A DNA stretch of 64,000 bases. It comes from Streptomyces cellostaticus (lineage in GTDB: Bacteria > Actinomycetota > Actinomycetes > Streptomycetales > Streptomycetaceae). Shown piece after piece: positions 18,226 through 26,559 of this stretch. Location of the stretch: the NCBI RefSeq assembly GCF_001513965.1, contig NZ_KQ948025.1, positions 105,603 to 169,602 on the forward strand, in the 5' to 3' direction. Positions within the stretch are counted from its first letter, which is position 1. The number at the start of each line of letters is the position of its first letter. Made by a program: the position numbers and the translations under genes. The notes under the pieces were generated by a model. That model was not told where the DNA came from, searched no databases, and saw only the letters and a list, made by a program, of their open reading frames with translations.

Positions 18226-18756
18226 TCAGCCGGTGGTGAGGCGGGCGGGTTCCATGCCGGCGATGAGGGTGGCCAGGGCGTGGTCGATGCCGGGGCCGAC
18301 GTACCAGTCGCCGGTGTGGTCGAGGGTGTAGATGCGGCCTTCGGCGTCGATGGCGAGGAGGGCGGCGGTGTCGGTTTCCTCGCCGAGGGGGCAGACCTCG
18401 GTGCCGAGGGCGCGGCCGAGGTCGCCGAGGGTGCGGGCGAGGTGGAGGCCGTGCAGGGGGTCGAGGTGGAGGGTGGCGGGGGCGATCTGGCGGCCGGGGC
18501 CGGTGGGTGCGATGCGGAGGCCGCCGAATTCGGCCCAGGCTTCGACGGCGGCGGGGAAGACGGTGTGCCGGTGTCCGGCGGGTGAGGTGTGTTCGCGCAG
18601 GGTGTCGGCCCAGACTTCCGCCTGCTTTATGTCCCAGCGTCCGGGTTGCCAGCCGGCGGCGCGCAGGGCGGCGTCGACGGGTACGGGGAAGCGCGATGGG
18701 GGTCCCCCCGGTCGAGCGAAGTCGAGACTGGGGGAGGAGGTGCGGTCGGGGTGCAT
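18226..18756 (-). CDS. SUKH-3 family immunity-like protein
   Basis: The 176-residue product resembles SUKH-3 (SMI1/KNR4-superfamily) immunity proteins: a start ALRAAGWQPGRWDIKQAEVW, a central FPAAVEAWAEFGGLRI and a C-terminal LLAIDAEGRIYTLDHTGDWY, followed by GIDHALATLIAG. It lies 49 bp downstream of the YwqJ-type deaminase gene on the same strand, the usual order for a toxin and its antidote. The first 25 residues include a stretch encoded by a dispersed palindromic repeat that appears inserted in frame after MHPDRTSS. The match is from pattern recognition, not a search. Confidence 0.75.
   Translation of the reverse strand: MHPDRTSSPSLDFARPGGPPSRFPVPVDAALRAAGWQPGRWDIKQAEVWADTLREHTSPAGHRHTVFPAAVEAWAEFGGLRIAPTGPGRQIAPATLHLDPLHGLHLARTLGDLGRALGTEVCPLGEETDTAALLAIDAEGRIYTLDHTGDWYVGPGIDHALATLIAGMEPARLTTG
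18695..18737. repeat. Dispersed palindromic repeat inside the SUKH-3 reading frame
   Basis: GATGGGGGTCCCCCCGG, then TCGAGCGAAGTCGAGACT and GGGGGAGG nearly repeat the copy at 12126-12169. Here it encodes the residues PSLDFARPGGPPS near the N-terminus of the SUKH-3 protein. Confidence 0.7.
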
Positions 18757-18805
18757 CTGCCCTTCGATCGTCGTGTTTGCTGGGTGGTGCCGGCGGTGCC
18801 GGGGT

Positions 18806-19321
18806 TCAGCTGTCGGCCGCTGTCGGGTCGACGATGCGGACGCCGAAGTGGGCGCTGAGGGCGGTGCAGGCGCGGCAGGGGGCGGCGAAGCTGCCGTGGA
18901 GGGGGTCGCCGTCCTCGCGTATGCGGCGGGCGGTGAGTTTGGCCCCTTTGAGGGCTTTGCGGCCTTCGCCGTTGGTCATGGGTTTGCGGGCGGCGCGTTT
19001 GCTGCGGGTGGTGTCGGCGGCGGCTATGTGCCGGGAGATGAGGATGGTTTCGGCGCAGCGGCCGGTGAAGCGGTCGCGCTGGGCGCTGGTGAGGGTGTCG
19101 AGGAAGTCCTGGACGAGGGGGTGCAGGGGCGGGGGCTGGTCGCTGCGGGCGGCGGTGCCGGTGAGGGTGGCGCCGCGGACGGAGAGGGCTGCGGCGATGG
19201 TGGGCAGGATGCCGTCGCGGCGGTGCAGGAGGGCGGGGGTGGGGGGTGTGTCGGTGCCGCTCCAGCCGATGCGTGGGTCACCGGCCCGCGCATGGTTACC
19301 TCCGGTCTGCAAGGTATTCAT
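18806..19321 (-). CDS. YwqJ-type putative deaminase (toxin-like)
   Basis: The 171-residue protein has the zinc-deaminase signature split as Cys89-Ala-Glu91 (FTGRCAETILISRHI) and Pro148-Cys149-x-x-Cys152 (SFAAPCRACTALSAHFGV), with a basic stretch RSKRAARKPMTNGEGRKALK between. This is the arrangement of the YwqJ-related family of polymorphic-toxin deaminases that act on nucleic acids or nucleotides. There is no signal peptide, WXG or RHS leader, so it is not an obvious exported effector. It precedes a SUKH-3 gene and is divergent from two further toxin/immunity-like fusions. The ATG has a GGGGAGGGG site about 11 bases upstream. Confidence 0.75.
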   Translation of the reverse strand: MNTLQTGGNHARAGDPRIGWSGTDTPPTPALLHRRDGILPTIAAALSVRGATLTGTAARSDQPPPLHPLVQDFLDTLTSAQRDRFTGRCAETILISRHIAAADTTRSKRAARKPMTNGEGRKALKGAKLTARRIREDGDPLHGSFAAPCRACTALSAHFGVRIVDPTAADS

Positions 19322-19426
19322 GATCGTCTTCCCCTCCCCGGGCGTCCCCCGAAGGACACAGAGTGCCAAATGCCGTGGCTGGTGGGGAAGCTGGGGCGGT
19401 GCGACACGCCCGGGTTTGGGCGGGCT

Positions 19427-19544
19427 GTCACGGCGGGGTGACGGCTGGTCACGGTTGTGGGGGGCGGTGGTGCCGGGATCGGAGGGGTGGGTGGTGCGGT
19501 GGATGTGATGGGCCGGTGACCGGGGTTCGTGTACCGCATAGGCT
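19427..19544 (+). promoter_or_regulatory. Divergent control region: GTCAC/GTGAC repeats and a candidate promoter
   Basis: GTCAC (19427-19431), GTGAC (19438-19442) and GTCAC (19448-19452) give two overlapping inverted repeats with centres about one helical turn apart. Downstream, GTGACC (19516-19521) and TAGGCT (19539-19544) are separated by 17 bp and resemble a sigma-70-type -35/-10 pair reading toward the WHH/SUKH gene at 19607. Confidence 0.4.
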
Positions 19545-19606
19545 GTCGTCATCCGCGATCGACACCGCCGTTCAGGCCAGAGAGAACGCCGCAGGGGGCA
19601 ACCGCC

Positions 19607-20596
19607 ATGACGACAGGTCGGCTCGGGCAGCAAGCCGCGCCGCCGAACGCGGCCTATGCCGGGCAGGTCGTGCACTTCCCGGATCCGGTTCGGGCGGCAC
19701 GTCACCCGAGAGGAGTACGGGTCGACGAGCGTGGTTACCCGGATTTCTCGGCGTATGCGCGCGCGGCGGCTCAGATCGCCGATCCGCCGGAGGGTTTCGG
19801 TGTCGACGAGTTGCGGCTGACGGACTACGTGTCGGCGAACGCGGCGCTCGCGGCTTCGGGGCACGAGTTGTGGGACACGGTGCCGGATGTGGCGACGCCG
19901 CACGGCTGGACGTGGCATCACGTGGTGGGTTCGCGGCGGCTGGAGCTGGTTCCGGTCGAGGTGAAGGCGTTGCTGCGGCATCACGGTGGGGTGGCGACGA
20001 CGCGGGTGGACCACGCCAAGCGGGGGACGCGGCCGTTGCAGGAGACGCGTCCGGCGCACTTCGGGCTGCCGAAGTCGGGTGTGGCGGTGACGGAGTCGCA
20101 GGTGCAGGGCGTCGAGGAGGACCTGGGCTACCGGTTGCCGGGTGCCTATCGCTCGTTCCTGAAGGCGGCGGGCGGCAGCGCGCCGGTGGGTACGGCGCTC
20201 GTCGCCGAGCTGGGGCTGCTGCTGGACCAGCCGTTCTTCACGGTGCGGGACGAGGCGGCGGTCAACGACCTGGTGTATGTGAACAAGTGCCTGCGCGACC
20301 ATCTGACGAAGGATTACCTGGGCGTCGGCTTTGTGCAGGGCGGTCTGCTCGCGGTGAAGGTGAAGGGCGAGCGGCTGGGTTCGGTGTGGTTCTGTGCGTA
20401 CGACGATGCGCGGGACGTGGATCCGTCGTGGCCGCCGGCCGAGCGGGTGGAGCGGCTGCTGCTGCCGTGCGGTGACGATTTCGACGCCTTCCTGTCGCGG
20501 CTGGCGGGCAGTCCGCCGGAGTTGGAGACGGTGGCGAACCTGATGGTGGACGGCGGTTTCGCGCGTGCCGTTCCGGTCTCTTCGGCGGGGGAGTGA
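19607..20596 (+). CDS. WHH-type HNH/EndoVII nuclease domain fused to a SUKH-1 (SMI1/KNR4) domain
   Basis: The 329-residue protein has two recognisable parts. Residues about 30-135 resemble the WHH family of HNH/endonuclease VII toxins: DYVSANAALAASGHELWDTV, then HGWTWHHVVGSRRLELVPVE with Trp103-His104-His105, and ALLRHHGGVA. Residues about 158-305 resemble an SMI1/KNR4 fold: VTESQVQGVEEDLGYRLPGA, YRSFLKAAGGSAPVG and a long strand pair. Toxin and immunity-like domains are thus in one chain. No export signal is seen. Its stop overlaps the ribosome-binding region of the next gene, so the two are co-translated. Confidence 0.75.
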   Translation: MTTGRLGQQAAPPNAAYAGQVVHFPDPVRAARHPRGVRVDERGYPDFSAYARAAAQIADPPEGFGVDELRLTDYVSANAALAASGHELWDTVPDVATPHGWTWHHVVGSRRLELVPVEVKALLRHHGGVATTRVDHAKRGTRPLQETRPAHFGLPKSGVAVTESQVQGVEEDLGYRLPGAYRSFLKAAGGSAPVGTALVAELGLLLDQPFFTVRDEAAVNDLVYVNKCLRDHLTKDYLGVGFVQGGLLAVKVKGERLGSVWFCAYDDARDVDPSWPPAERVERLLLPCGDDFDAFLSRLAGSPPELETVANLMVDGGFARAVPVSSAGE

Positions 20597-20604
20597 GCTT
20601 CGCG

Positions 20605-23600
20605 ATGGTGACGTTCGCACAGGCGCAGGAGCGCGCCGAGGAGTGGATCAACGGGGATGTCCCGGCGTACCAGCATCGTGAGGTGCGGGTGCGGGAGTTC
20701 GAGCTGGGCTTCGTGGTGTGGGGTGAGGACCGTGCGGAGGGCCCGCGTTCGGATGCGGGCGGGCAGCGGCTGGTGATCGCCCGGGACAGTGGTGAGGCGA
20801 CGCTGTGGCCGGCGTTGCCGGTGGGTGAGGTGATCCGCCGGTACGAGGAGGAGTACGGCCGGGGCGACGAGGTCGAGGACGCGGTGCCGGCGCCGGCTCC
20901 TGCGCGGGTGGATCTGAACCAGACGTCGTTCCTGCTGAGTCCGCCGGAGTGGTTGCAGGAGGCGGCGGACAAGCTGGGCATTCCGGATCGGCGGTCGGGG
21001 GAGGGCTCGGGCGCTGCGGTTCCGGCCGGTGCTGATTCCGGTGCCGGTGCCGGTGCCGGTGCCGTTGGCGGTTCGGTCGGTGGGGGTTTCGCCGGGGGCG
21101 GGGCGCTTGCCGAGACGCAGGCCGGGGTGCCTGCGGGGGCGGATGCTGCGGCTTCGGGTGTGCCGGCTGGGTCTGGTGGTGCGGGTACGGCCGGTGGGGC
21201 TGGGAGCGGTGCGTCGTGGCCGGCGGCCGGGGCGGGCGGTGCGCCGGGTGGTGCGCCGGGTGTGGGCGCGCCCGGTGGGGCGCAGGATGCGCCGAGTGCG
21301 CCGGAGGTGCCCGTGGGGGCCACGCCGTGGGCCGGTACGGACACGAATGCGGATGCTGGTGAGGACCGTTCGGTGCCGCTGCCCGCGACGGTGTTCGCGC
21401 CGCCGTTGAGCGAGGGGGGCGGCGAGGCTCCGCGGCCGCCGGCAGCGGCTCCGGAGGCGAAGACGGCGTTGATGTCGGGGGGCAGCCAGCTGCCGCCCAC
21501 GGCGGTCGCGCCGGCGCTCGATGCCTCGAACGCGCCGGGAGCGCCTGCTGCTCCTGGTGCGCCGGGTGCTCCGTTGGGCAGCACGCCTCCGCCGGGCGCG
21601 CCGCCGTACGGCTACCCGCAGGGTCCGGCGGCACCTGGTACGCCTCCGCCGGGCGCGCCGGTCTATTCTCCGGCGCCTGGCACTCCGCCTGCGGCCCCTG
21701 CTGGTCCTGGTGCGCCGGGCGTTCCGTTGGGCAGCACGCCTCCGCCGGGCGCGCCGCCGTACGGCTACCCGCAGGGTCCGGCGGCACCTGGTACGCCTCC
21801 GCCGGGGGCGCCGGTCTACTCTCCGGCGCCCGGTACCTCGCCCGCGGCCCCTGGTGCGCCGGGTGCTCCGCTGGGCAGCACGCCTCCTCCGCCTCCGCCG
21901 GGCGCCCAGTCGTACGGCTATCCGCAGGGTCCGGGCGCGCCGGGTGCCCCGGGTGGTCCGCAGGCTGCTCCCGGTTACGGCTATCCGCAGGCGCCGGGCG
22001 GCGCCCCGCACGCGCCGCAGCCTCCGGCCGGCCCCGGGCGGCCGCTCGCGCCGCACGCCGGGGACATCGCGGATGCCGCGACGAGCAAGGCCGCGCCGCC
22101 GCCGCGCAAGGCGCGCGGTGGGCCGGGCGCGCCGCCGCCTCCGCCGGGCGCCCCTGGTGCGCCGGGCGCGCACCCGGGCTATCCCGCGCCGCCTGCGCCT
22201 GGTGTGCCGGGTGCGCCTCCGGGCGGGTATGTGCCGACGCAGCTCGTGTCCGCGCTTGGGCCCGAGGGGCCTGAGGGACAGGGCGTTCCGGGCATTCCGG
22301 GCGCTCCCGGTGGTCCGGTGGGCGCGGAGGCGGCGCAGACTCCGGGCGCCCCCCATCCGCCTGGTGCGCCGGGTGCTCCCGGTGGCACGCCCCCGGGCAA
22401 CGTCCACCACGCGGCCACGATGCTGGCCGACCCGAGTCAGCTGGGAGCGGGCACGCCGCAGCCTCCGGGCGCCCCGGGCATGCCTCCCGCTCCCGGCGCG
22501 CCTCAGCCGTCGGGCGCCCCCGGCGCCCCGCAGCCCCCAGGCGCCCCGGGTGTGCCCGGAGCGCCCGGTGCCCCCGGCGCTGCCGGAGGTGGGCGTGGGG
22601 CCGTGCACCACGCGGAGACCATGCTGGCCGCGCCGCCTGTGGGCGGCCCGGGCGCACCCCCGCCGCCGCCCGCCCCGGGTGCTCCCGGCATGCCGCCGGG
22701 AGCCCCGCAGCCGATGCCGCCGGGTGCGATGCCGCCGCCGGGCGGGCCCCTGCCGGGGCAGCCTCCGGCGTACGGCTATCCGCAGCAGGGGCAGCCGACG
22801 GTGGGCCCGGGCTACCAGGCCGTGCTGCGCTATCGCGCGCAGGACGGTTCGGAGCAGCAGCTGATCCGGCGTTCGGCGCCGGGTACGCCGCACCCGGAGT
22901 GGCAGATCTTCCACGAGCTGCGGTCGATGAACGTGCCGCCGGACCAGGTGCTGGAGCTGCACACCGAGCTGGAGTCGTGCTCGCTGCCGGGCGCGTACTG
23001 CGCGCGGATGATCCGGGATCAGTGGCCGCAGGCGCGGATCACGAGCATCGCGCCGTACGGCACGGATCACGCGAGCCGGCAGCAGGGCATGCAGCAGTTG
23101 CTGGCGCACCAGGGCGAGTTGCACCAGGTGGCGGACGGTCCTGCGCGGCCGGCGCCGGTGCGGGCGCCGCTGGCGCCGGTGCAGGCGCTGCCGCCGGTCC
23201 CGCCGGAGGCCGTCGCGCAGGAGCTGGCGGCGGTGTTCGGGCCGGGGATCTTCCGGTTCGAGCAGCAGGCGGTGTCGCGGCAGGGTGTGCCGCCGGTCGT
23301 GGCGCACACGCTGGTGGTGTCCGGGCTGCCGGTGGACCTGGGCCCGTTCTTCTGGGCGCAGGCCCAGCCGGGCCGTCCGGTGCCGACGCTGGCGGAGCTG
23401 GCGGCCGAGCGCGGGGTGCAGCCGGCCTCGGACGCGGGCTCGTACCTCGTCATGGGCACGGACTTCGGCAGGGCGATCTGTGTGCAGTACGGGACGGCGA
23501 ACATCGTCGCCGTGCCGGTGGAGGCGGGCCCGGGCGGTGCGCCGGTGCCGCCGCAGTTCGTGAACACCGGGCTGCCGGAGTTCGCGCGGTGCCTGGCGCT

Positions 23601-23766
23601 GCTGGGCCGGATGTGGCGGCTGCGGTTCGGGCTGAACCAGGAGCAGGCGGGCCGCTGGACCGTCGACTTCCAGTCCCAGCTGGCGGCCCTGGACCCGGCG
23701 GCGCTCGGTTCGCCGGAGAGCTGGTGGTCGGTGCTGCTGGAGCAGATGTGGGACGGACTGCTGTAG
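20605..23766 (+). CDS. Multidomain YrhB/Imm35-like, collagen-like linker, deaminase and SUKH-4-like protein
   Basis: The 1053-residue protein has four regions. Residues 1-90 (FAQAQERAEEWINGDVPAYQ, LVIARDSGEATLWPALPVGE) look like a YrhB/Imm35-type domain. Residues about 130-735 are Pro/Gly/Ala-rich collagen-like repeats containing the recurring HHA-x-TMLA motif. Residues about 740-845 look like a deaminase: His786-Thr-Glu788 and Cys792-x6-Cys799 in LELHTELESCSLPGAYCARM, then YGTDHASRQQGM. Residues about 870-1050 resemble SUKH-4 (YLVMGTDFGRAICVQYGTAN). No signal peptide is seen. ATG 20605 is nine bases past the preceding stop; a GTG at 20593 lies too close to the ribosome site. Domain names come from memory of motifs. 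Confidence 0.72.
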   Translation: MVTFAQAQERAEEWINGDVPAYQHREVRVREFELGFVVWGEDRAEGPRSDAGGQRLVIARDSGEATLWPALPVGEVIRRYEEEYGRGDEVEDAVPAPAPARVDLNQTSFLLSPPEWLQEAADKLGIPDRRSGEGSGAAVPAGADSGAGAGAGAVGGSVGGGFAGGGALAETQAGVPAGADAAASGVPAGSGGAGTAGGAGSGASWPAAGAGGAPGGAPGVGAPGGAQDAPSAPEVPVGATPWAGTDTNADAGEDRSVPLPATVFAPPLSEGGGEAPRPPAAAPEAKTALMSGGSQLPPTAVAPALDASNAPGAPAAPGAPGAPLGSTPPPGAPPYGYPQGPAAPGTPPPGAPVYSPAPGTPPAAPAGPGAPGVPLGSTPPPGAPPYGYPQGPAAPGTPPPGAPVYSPAPGTSPAAPGAPGAPLGSTPPPPPPGAQSYGYPQGPGAPGAPGGPQAAPGYGYPQAPGGAPHAPQPPAGPGRPLAPHAGDIADAATSKAAPPPRKARGGPGAPPPPPGAPGAPGAHPGYPAPPAPGVPGAPPGGYVPTQLVSALGPEGPEGQGVPGIPGAPGGPVGAEAAQTPGAPHPPGAPGAPGGTPPGNVHHAATMLADPSQLGAGTPQPPGAPGMPPAPGAPQPSGAPGAPQPPGAPGVPGAPGAPGAAGGGRGAVHHAETMLAAPPVGGPGAPPPPPAPGAPGMPPGAPQPMPPGAMPPPGGPLPGQPPAYGYPQQGQPTVGPGYQAVLRYRAQDGSEQQLIRRSAPGTPHPEWQIFHELRSMNVPPDQVLELHTELESCSLPGAYCARMIRDQWPQARITSIAPYGTDHASRQQGMQQLLAHQGELHQVADGPARPAPVRAPLAPVQALPPVPPEAVAQELAAVFGPGIFRFEQQAVSRQGVPPVVAHTLVVSGLPVDLGPFFWAQAQPGRPVPTLAELAAERGVQPASDAGSYLVMGTDFGRAICVQYGTANIVAVPVEAGPGGAPVPPQFVNTGLPEFARCLALLGRMWRLRFGLNQEQAGRWTVDFQSQLAALDPAALGSPESWWSVLLEQMWDGLL
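21571..21905 (+). repeat. Long tandem repeat in the collagen-like linker
   Basis: A unit beginning CCGTTGGGCAGCACGCCTCC starts at 21571 and again at 21724 (period 153 bp, 51 codons), with a diverged third start at 21868 (144 bp later). The copies are nearly identical at the DNA level, implying recent slippage or recombination. Confidence 0.8.
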
Positions 23767-25401: not shown

Positions 25402-25665
25402 CGGTCCGTTTCCTCGCCCTGTAGGAGAGGCCGGCCGGGCGCCGTCCGGCGCCCGTCCGCAGCATGGTCGTCACCCTGGAGGGGGACGTGCTCCGGGCGG
25501 CCCGTGCAGTGCCCCGAAGACCGTACGGATCGCGAAGTGCGCATGCCGCGGGGATCCTACCGTGACATTCTGCGGAGTGTCGTGTTATGCGCGCTTACAT
25601 CCGATCCATCAAGATGTGCGCGAAATGATGCTGTCGAGTACGTCCGGCGGAGAGGGGTTCCCAGG

Positions 25666-26559
25666 GTGAGCAGCGCATCGGCGACGCCGTACGGCTTCGC
25701 GACCGTCCGGGGGCGCGGCTACCGCCCCGATCAGGTCGACGCGTACCTGGAGGCACTGTCGCTGGACCGTGATGCCGCGTGGGAGCGTGCCGCGCGGCTG
25801 ACCGTGCTCGCCAAGGACATGAGGGCGGAGGCCGCGCAGCTGCGCGAGGCCGTCGCGCAGCTTCCGCCCCAGGCGTACGAGACGCTCGGGGAGAGCGCAC
25901 GGAGTCTGTTCCAGCTCGCGCTGGAGGAAGCGGCGGAGGTCCGTGACCGTGCGCGGCGCGAGACACAGCAGCAGGTCGCGCAGGCCGAAGCCCAGGCCCT
26001 CGGCGTACGTCAGGCGGCGCAGGAAGCCGCCGACGCGCTCTGCGCGGAAGCCGAGGAACACGCCCGCCAGTGCCTCCTTGCGGCGCACGCCGAAGTCGAC
26101 GCCCTGCGCATCGGCAGCCGGCGCGAAGCGAAGGAAGGACGCGCGGCGGCGCTCGCCGAGTTGCGCGACGTACGGCAGCGCACCACCGTCGTGCTCGCCG
26201 AGCAGACCCGGGAGCACGCCGAGCAGTGGGCCGCTCTCGAGCGCGAGGAGGCCGAGCAGCTGGCCGCGCTGGCGGACCGCCACGCCGAGCAGGTCTCCCG
26301 CGCGGAGGCCTCCCTGGCCGAGGCGAAACGTGCGCATGCCGAGGCCGAGGAGTCCGCACGCCGCAGCCACGAGGAGGCACACGCGCGTGCCGCGGAAATC
26401 CTCGCCGAGGCCCGCCTGCGCGAGGAGCGCATCACCCGGGACACGGAAGAGATGCTGCGCGAGCACGGCGAGACCTGGGACGACGTGCAGGCGCACATGG
26501 ACCACGTGCGCGACAGCCTGATCACGCTGCAGGGCAGAGCGGCACTCGAAGAGCGGTAG
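25666..26559 (+). CDS. DivIVA-like coiled-coil protein
   Basis: The 297-residue protein begins with a short DivIVA-type segment (YGFATVRGRGYRPDQVDAYL), followed from about residue 35 to the end by an almost uninterrupted Ala/Glu/Arg coiled coil. Actinobacterial proteins of this kind, such as FilP and Scy relatives often annotated as cellulose-binding, form filaments or polar scaffolds. That role is inferred only from architecture. GGAGAGGGG is about eight bases before the GTG at 25666; the frame is open further upstream but lacks the conserved start. The preceding 264 bases hold no recognisable gene. Confidence 0.8.
   Translation: MSSASATPYGFATVRGRGYRPDQVDAYLEALSLDRDAAWERAARLTVLAKDMRAEAAQLREAVAQLPPQAYETLGESARSLFQLALEEAAEVRDRARRETQQQVAQAEAQALGVRQAAQEAADALCAEAEEHARQCLLAAHAEVDALRIGSRREAKEGRAAALAELRDVRQRTTVVLAEQTREHAEQWAALEREEAEQLAALADRHAEQVSRAEASLAEAKRAHAEAEESARRSHEEAHARAAEILAEARLREERITRDTEEMLREHGETWDDVQAHMDHVRDSLITLQGRAALEER

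What the first reader, a model, noticed from the sequence alone, without database searches (positions are those of the whole stretch)
20605..23766. Deaminase with a C-x6-C zinc pair between a collagen-like linker and a SUKH-4-like domain
His786-Thr-Glu788 and Cys792-x6-Cys799 replace the common C/H-A-E ... P-C-x-x-C spacing; the motif pairs lie almost adjacent instead of 25-60 residues apart. With an N-terminal immunity-like domain and about 600 residues of Pro/Gly repeats, the architecture is unusual for a bacterial cytoplasmic protein.
Basis: partly seen in the sequence, partly recalled or inferred. Interest (0 to 1): 0.66.

Follow-up and report, generated by a model that had tools for sequence, protein, structure and literature searches.

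The report
Streptomyces core deaminase with built-in immunity domain
The protein is a recognised toxin-type deaminase, with its catalytic pair at a different place from the one first proposed, and it sits fused to an immunity-type domain in a gene cluster that Streptomyces species carry as an ordinary inherited chromosomal locus, which is surprising for genes that look like weapons.

Summary
The ORF is real (20605-23766, 1053 aa). It holds a Pfam XOO_2897-like deaminase (PF14440, 124 bits, cut-off 27) followed by a SUKH-4 domain (PF14435, 161 bits). The HxE motif is His763-Pro-Glu765, at the start of a predicted helix; "His786-Thr-Glu788" lies in the next strand and position 786 is Tyr in 10 of 15 aligned paralogues. 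Glu765 and the first Cys are 27 residues apart, an ordinary arrangement. C-x6-C is real but occurs in 14 of those 15 paralogues. The deaminase fold is predicted (pLDDT 84.8; top Foldseek hits APOBEC3H and AID). The N-terminal "immunity" domain and the "collagen" label found no support; the linker carries conserved short motifs. What is unusual is the context: a syntenic four-gene cluster (SUKH-3, YwqJ deaminase, WHH nuclease-SUKH-1, this protein), complete in 39 of 40 Streptomyces loci, with invariant catalytic residues, median dN/dS 0.16-0.25 for the two fusion genes and divergence tracking GlmU. Best reading: toxin-immunity modules domesticated into a vertically inherited, cis-restrained intracellular effector locus. 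Activity, target and trigger are untested.

The parts
20605..23766 (+). gene of the finding, 1053 aa, ATG start 8 nt after the stop of the upstream gene
20605..20877 (+). conserved N-terminal domain of about 90 aa, unassigned (no Pfam match)
20878..22794 (+). Pro/Gly/Ala-rich linker, 639 aa here; 230-852 aa across the 41 sequences compared
20923..20958 (+). linker motif TSFLLSPPEWLQ; TSF[LM]L[ST]PP is in 34 of 34 in-frame linkers
21385..21411 (+). linker motif ATVFAPPLS; pattern [AEQL]TV[FLV][AS] in 32 of 34
22234..22251 (+). linker motif PTQLVS; pattern [PA]T[QR][LMF][VA] in 30 of 34
22414..22428 (+). linker motif ATMLA, first copy; pattern [AEQ]TM[LF][AS] in 30 of 34, 0-5 copies
22615..22629 (+). 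linker motif ETMLA, second copy
22795..23148 (+). XOO_2897-like deaminase domain (PF14440; profile match 22804-23106)
22891..22899 (+). HxE motif His763-Pro764-Glu765
22960..22968 (+).
22978..23001 (+). Cys792-x6-Cys799, presumed zinc ligands with His763
23215..23745 (+). SUKH-4 domain (PF14435)
19607..20596 (+). upstream gene: WHH (HNH/EndoVII) nuclease domain fused to SUKH-1; W103-H104-H105 invariant in 40 of 40
18806..19321 (-). YwqJ-like deaminase (PF14431, 89.7 bits), divergent from the nuclease gene; Cys89, Glu91, Cys149, Cys152 invariant in 39 of 39 hits among 40 loci
18226..18756 (-). SUKH-3 immunity-type protein (PF14433, 202 bits)

Best explanation
The protein is a member of the XOO_2897-like deaminase family carrying its own SUKH-4 domain. 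It belongs to a four-gene Streptomyces cluster holding three nucleic-acid-acting domains (two deaminases and one HNH-type nuclease), each fused to or next to a SUKH domain. The ancestors were toxin-immunity cassettes of polymorphic-toxin type; here they have become vertically inherited chromosomal genes. The likely mechanism: the SUKH-4 domain holds the deaminase inactive in cis, while the N-terminal domain and the motif-studded flexible linker sense or tether a partner. When that partner or a stress signal binds, the SUKH-4 domain is displaced and the deaminase (Zn held by His763, Cys792 and Cys799; Glu765 as proton shuttle) deaminates bases in RNA or DNA inside the hypha, as an intracellular response such as self-limitation on infection or in development. 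Shown by computation: family membership, predicted fold, invariant catalytic residues, fusion, synteny, purifying selection. Inferred: ancestry as a toxin, zinc, activity, inhibition in cis, cytoplasmic site, trigger and target.
For: Family: PF14440 124 bits and SUKH-4 161 bits. Fold: AF2 pLDDT 84.8, pTM 0.77, order E-E-H(HPE)-E-H(Cys)-E-H; Foldseek top matches APOBEC3H and AID, DddA lower down (one match at E<=0.001, TM-score 0.56); VIA best Z 8.3, RibD-type, with cytidine deaminases and APOBEC3H next. Active site: His763, Glu765, Cys792, Cys799 invariant in 40/40, 54/54 (overlapping sets) and 80/80 orthologues. Near-universal: PF14440 match in 141 of 150 genomes of the genus and, by my count of the listing, 179 of 181 in the order sample (overlapping genomes); upstream nuclease-SUKH gene in 141 of 150. 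All 12 of 396 phylum genomes over the cut-off are of this genus. Synteny: nuclease, deaminase and SUKH-4 in 40 of 40 loci, SUKH-3 and YwqJ deaminase in 39 of 40. Selection: median pairwise dN/dS deaminase 0.161, SUKH-4 0.234, N-domain 0.246, nuclease-SUKH 0.221. Inheritance: distances correlate with those of neighbouring GlmU (r 0.69-0.88 for five cluster parts, each above all 999 permutations, n=33), and the deaminase domain diverges less than GlmU (0.148 against 0.190). Intracellular: no trafficking domain matched; a paralogue carries the same deaminase-SUKH-4 pair behind a long N-terminal region that I read by eye as HTH plus coiled coil (not profile-tested).
Against: No experiment, zinc or activity datum. 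The two-domain model is poor (pLDDT 50.9, pTM 0.33), so it gives no evidence that SUKH-4 touches the deaminase. Cytoplasmic site rests only on the absence of a matched trafficking domain. One of 40 loci (L095, a finished genome) lacks the SUKH-3 and YwqJ genes beside the pair, and these two genes change faster: SUKH-3 mean distance 0.291 against 0.190 for GlmU, YwqJ identity 47-89 %, median 69 %. GlmU is a neighbour, so transfer of the whole block would give the same correlation. PADLOC models match none of the four proteins. Trigger and target have no evidence. 7 of 40 loci have a frame change within the linker; motifs go on in another frame in 5 of these 7, so I read them as assembly errors, but true breakage is not excluded.
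Confidence: 0.55

Rival explanations
1. It is still an inter-bacterial polymorphic toxin: exported by an unrecognised route, with the SUKH-4 domain as built-in immunity in the producer.
For: PF14440, YwqJ, WHH and SUKH are all catalogued polymorphic toxin or immunity families (PMC3482391, passages). Accessory PF14440 copies on two Streptomyces plasmids lie near a larger deaminase gene with a separate SUKH-4 gene.
Against: No trafficking domain matched; near-fixed in the genus and slowly evolving; immunity is part of the same chain, so export would carry the inhibitor along.
Confidence: 0.15
2. A housekeeping nucleic-acid or nucleotide editor of Streptomyces: a deaminase with a regular RNA or nucleotide substrate, with SUKH-4 and the linker as scaffold.
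For: Distribution, a deaminase domain that diverges less than GlmU, and invariant catalytic residues fit an everyday enzyme. Linker motifs in fixed order (26 of 26 linkers where the three could be placed) suggest docking sites.
Against: The neighbours are two more toxin-type domains with SUKH partners, which points to conflict biology; no substrate evidence.
Confidence: 0.2
3. Immunity decoy or antidote store: the cluster mainly protects against related toxins of other strains, the toxin domains being retained only to keep the SUKH partners folded or specific.
For: Three SUKH families in one locus resemble polyimmunity loci described in PMC3482391 (passages).
Against: Catalytic residues are invariant in the orthologues examined (Cys89/Glu91/Cys149/Cys152 in 39 of 39; WHH in 40 of 40), which a mere decoy would not need.
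Confidence: 0.1

Closest known systems
XOO_2897-like deaminase, Pfam PF14440
   Same: Profile match over nearly the whole model; HPE plus C-x6-C as in 14 of 15 aligned paralogues; deaminase fold predicted
   Different: Near-universal in Streptomyces, placed between a long linker and SUKH-4 in one chain
SUKH-4 immunity family, Pfam PF14435
   Same: 161-bit match over nearly the whole model
   Different: In the same chain as the deaminase
Streptomyces plasmid loci with PF14440-type deaminase and SUKH-4 genes (NZ_CP108606.1, NZ_CP054921.1)
   Same: Same two families
   Different: About 34 % identical over the deaminase part, much shorter gene, and a second larger deaminase gene with a separate SUKH-4 gene nearby; domain order in these plasmid genes was not checked (in chromosomal relatives L227 and L228 SUKH-4-like sequence comes first)
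DddA-type and APOBEC/AID deaminases
   Same: Predicted fold
   Different: Low sequence identity, C-x6-C here; no activity known here

Membership tests
XOO_2897-like deaminase (PF14440) | Profile score above the curated cut-off | tested here: met
   124.4 bits against 27; 129.8
XOO_2897-like deaminase (PF14440) | HxE and Cys pair of the zinc site | tested here: met
   H763/E765/C792/C799 invariant in orthologues; H763, C792, C799 in 14 and E765 in 15 of 15 distinct aligned paralogues
XOO_2897-like deaminase (PF14440) | Deaminase fold | tested here: met
   AF2 and Foldseek; VIA Z 8.3 at best, a middling value
XOO_2897-like deaminase (PF14440) | Zinc binding and deamination | not testable with these tools
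   needs protein
SUKH-4 (PF14435) | Profile score above cut-off | tested here: met
   161.1 bits against 25.5
SUKH-4 (PF14435) | Neutralises its partner toxin | not testable with these tools
   two-domain model too poor to read an interface
Polymorphic toxin | N-terminal trafficking domain | tested here: not met
   no such Pfam match at E<=1 in the whole protein, none for the N-terminal domain of the window
Polymorphic toxin | Toxin domain varies between strains by recombination | tested here: not met
   same deaminase in 40 of 40 loci, dN/dS 0.161
Polymorphic toxin | Immunity protein from a separate adjacent gene | tested here: not met
   SUKH-4 is in the same chain
Imm35 (PF15567), considered for the N-terminal domain | Profile match | tested here: not met
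   no Imm35 match for 21 members at E<=10; own-genome search at E<=10 did not hit this locus
Collagen-like repeat | Long uninterrupted Gly-X-Y | tested here: not met
   42 of 639 residues in runs of 4 or more triplets
Known anti-phage defence protein | PADLOC profile match | tested here: inconclusive
   no match at E<=0.1; the library covers only described systems

The most novel reading that the evidence does not exclude
Streptomyces as a genus has domesticated three nucleic-acid-attacking toxin domains (YwqJ deaminase, WHH nuclease, XOO_2897 deaminase) with their SUKH partners into one fixed intracellular locus, in which the long motif-bearing linker is a sensor or scaffold that releases the deaminase from its own SUKH-4 domain to edit or damage nucleic acids in its own hyphae, as a programmed response in development or infection.
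Probability: 0.35. Interest if true: 0.85.

Novelty: new variant of a known kind. Interest (0 to 1): 0.52.

Why it matters
Toxin and immunity domains of this sort are normally accessory and fast-changing. A locus with three of them that is near-universal in a large, well-studied genus, with intact active sites and with a deaminase domain that diverges less than a cell-wall precursor enzyme, would mean that conflict proteins have become part of normal Streptomyces physiology. It can be tested directly in model strains, where the genes probably correspond to SCO3115-SCO3118 (inferred from gene order only: SCO3114 is a rod-domain protein; SCO3119 an orphan histidine kinase).

Tried and rejected
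His786-Thr-Glu788 as catalytic pair: rejected. C-x6-C as unique: rejected, in 14 of 15 aligned paralogues; it is not absolute, as L049 and one frame in L230 show other spacings. Collagen: rejected. Imm35 for the N-terminal domain: an own idea from memory; not supported. PDB by sequence: no credible relative of the deaminase domain (best E 0.6), the upstream protein (none at E<=1) or the N-terminal domain (best E 0.73). Phage records: no match at E<=0.01. Linker motif elsewhere in the genome: the extended pattern for HHA[AE]T[MV]LA occurs twice, both in this gene. Two-domain model: uninformative. Genomes lacking one gene: G010 has a run of Ns directly after the N-terminal domain, in G033 the deaminase lies at a contig end, and in G030 the contig ends about 1.2 kb after the N-terminal domain; the other absences were not examined. 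Recount: I first had 16 paralogues; L047 repeats the gene of L044, so 15. The pattern [AEQ]T[MV][LF][AS] (109 hits, 33 of 34 linkers) also counts the ATVFA site, so I give the strict form [AEQ]TM[LF][AS], 69 hits in 30 of 34. Rows dropped: 8 of 24 paralogue loci did not align; 7 of 40 loci with a frame change were left out of the linker motif counts. A1 holds 25 chosen sequences, A2 22 and A3 21 of those at hand. Papers: PMC3482391 seen as passages only; PMC2680258, PMC9739842, PMC3878966 and PMC4631099 as passages; all others as search listings, which were capped (20 of 618, 20 of 34, 12 of 642). No held paper names SCO3116, SCO3117, SCO3118 or SCO3120, nor SCO3115 together with Streptomyces.
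Full report
What is there. The gene runs from ATG 20605 to the stop at 23766, 1053 aa. The mechanical start at 20593 overlaps the upstream stop; in 40 of 40 loci the position aligned to 20605 is ATG, GTG or TTG, 3-14 nt after the upstream stop, so the two genes are probably co-transcribed (inference). Pfam finds two domains: PF14440 XOO_2897-like deaminase (124 bits) and PF14435 SUKH-4 (161 bits). NCBIfam finds none for it.

The catalytic motif. The family says otherwise. In orthologues both HPE (763-765) and HTE are invariant (40 of 40, 54 of 54 and 80 of 80, the first two sets sharing genomes), so orthologues cannot decide. Paralogues can: of 24 loci given, 16 aligned, 15 of them distinct. 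Glu765 is kept in 15, His763, Cys792 and Cys799 in 14; position 786 is His in 5 and Tyr in 10, and 788 is Glu in 12 and Asp in 3. The odd one out, L045, lacks His and both Cys and looks inactive. The AF2 model (25-sequence alignment A1, pLDDT 84.8, pTM 0.77) shows E8-14, E20-26, H34-44, E52-59, H69-76, E81-86, H92-113; HPE (33-35) caps the first helix, HTE (56-58) is in the third strand, Cys62 precedes and Cys69 begins the second helix. That is the usual deaminase order. Foldseek's best matches are APOBEC3H and AID, further down blasticidin S deaminase, cytidine deaminase and DddA (best E 8.9e-4 with TM-score 0.56 and rmsd 7.8, the only match at E<=0.001). VIA-align gives Z up to 8.3, a middling value, with RibD-type, APOBEC3H and cytidine deaminases at the top. 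Only the spacing C-x6-C in place of the common C-x2-C is special, and 14 of the 15 paralogues share it.

The other parts. The N-terminal 90 residues are well conserved but match nothing: 0 Pfam families for the window sequence and one weak hit in 1 of 21 members at E<=10, no Imm35 hit at this locus, PDB best E 0.73. The linker is 25 % Pro, 19 % Gly, 18 % Ala over the 34 in-frame sequences, 230-852 aa long over all 41. It is not collagen-like by period. It holds conserved islands: TSF[LM]L[ST]PP in 34 of 34, [AEQL]TV[FLV][AS] in 32 of 34, [PA]T[QR][LMF][VA] in 30 of 34, and [AEQ]TM[LF][AS] 69 times in 30 of 34, 0-5 copies each; in 200 composition-preserving shuffles no more than 3 linkers held any one of these. 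The order of the first three is the same in 26 of 26 linkers where all could be placed. The patterns were chosen after looking at the sequences, so the shuffles show enrichment, not an independent test.

The cluster. Upstream lies a gene for a WHH nuclease domain joined to SUKH-1. Divergent from it are a YwqJ-like deaminase (PF14431, 89.7 bits) and a SUKH-3 protein (202 bits). In 40 loci taken from 40 genomes of the genus, the nuclease gene, the deaminase and SUKH-4 are found in 40, the YwqJ and SUKH-3 genes in 39, in the same order and strands. The exception is L095, from a finished genome; I did not look for the two genes elsewhere in it. The active-site residues of the neighbours are invariant too (Cys89, Glu91, Cys149, Cys152 of the YwqJ gene in 39 of 39 hits; WHH in 40 of 40).

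Distribution. PF14440 matches in 141 of 150 genomes of the genus (own genome included); in all of these but G001 the best match has E 2.1e-34 or better. The nuclease-SUKH gene matches in 141 of 150. Three genomes (G008, G130, G147, each of several hundred contigs) lack both. Three of the one-gene absences were checked and are an N-gap or a contig end; the repetitive linker breaks assemblies. In the phylum sample 12 of 396 genomes pass the cut-off, all of this genus; two others, of other families, match below it, and one of these looks like an ordinary cytidine deaminase by its motifs (L042). In the order sample 188 of 197 genomes match: by my count 179 of 181 of the genus, one of another genus of the family (124 bits, with SUKH-4 beside it), and eight of another family with 35 to 99 bits.

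Selection and inheritance. Median pairwise dN/dS over 820 pairs: deaminase 0.161, SUKH-4 0.234, N-domain 0.246, nuclease-SUKH 0.221. Distances correlate with those of the neighbouring GlmU across 33 sequences (r 0.78 nuclease, 0.69 deaminase, 0.76 SUKH-4, 0.73 N-domain, 0.88 SUKH-3; each above all 999 permutations); the deaminase domain diverges less than GlmU (0.148 against 0.190), SUKH-3 more (0.291). GlmU is a neighbour, so transfer of the whole block would give the same signal; the near-complete distribution argues against that.

Accessory relatives. Other PF14440 copies in Streptomyces are patchy and more distant. Of the ORFs read, two (L227, L228) have SUKH-4-like sequence followed by the deaminase (tblastn), one (L229) deaminase then SUKH-4 without a long linker, and one (L225, 59-60 % identical in the two domains) a long other N-terminus before deaminase and SUKH-4. 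Two Streptomyces plasmids carry a deaminase gene of this family followed by a second, larger deaminase gene and a separate SUKH-4 gene. So fusion of this deaminase with SUKH-4 has several forms, and the one in the finding is the fixed chromosomal form.

How it may work. The fusion of a deaminase with an immunity domain in one chain makes sense if the immunity domain keeps the enzyme silent until a signal parts them. The conserved linker motifs would be docking sites, the variable spacer only distance. I could not test this: the two-domain model is poor. Alternatives are an exported toxin with built-in immunity, a housekeeping editor, or a protective store of immunity domains; the first fits badly with the fixed distribution, the last with the invariant catalytic residues.

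Known or new. The parts are known families. PMC3482391 (passages) lists YwqJ, XOO2897 and WHH among toxins linked to SUKH and notes occasional SUKH-toxin fusions. I found no description of this genus-wide cluster in the held library (searches; listings capped), but the founding 2011 papers are not held. I therefore call it a new variant of a known kind, with moderate interest that would rise if activity and an intracellular role were shown.

Noticed in passing
window 18226-20596: YwqJ-like deaminase with SUKH-3, and a WHH nuclease-SUKH-1 fusion, next to the finding; part of the conserved cluster
   Followed up: yes
window 21328-21345 and 18806-19321: The linker has WAGTDT (a related pattern is in 20 of 34 linkers) and the N-terminus of the YwqJ protein has a similar WSGTDT; a shared docking motif is possible but untested
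   Followed up: partly
L067, L085, L092, L099, L100, L101, L104 (linker part): Frame change within the linker in 7 of 40 loci; conserved motifs go on in another frame in five, so probably assembly errors in GC-rich repeats
   Followed up: partly
L045:1486-1866: A paralogue in one Streptomyces genome has lost the His and both Cys of the zinc site but keeps the rest of the domain; maybe an inactive regulator
   Followed up: no
L225:8526-9494: Second deaminase-SUKH-4 fusion (about 59 % identical) with a long, different N-terminal region that looks like HTH plus coiled coil by eye; it is in G012, the same genome whose main locus (L095) lacks the SUKH-3 and YwqJ genes
   Followed up: partly
window 25504-26559: Coiled-coil DivIVA-like protein downstream, found near the cluster in 30 of 40 loci; perhaps the counterpart of SCO3114, a rod-domain protein
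   Followed up: partly
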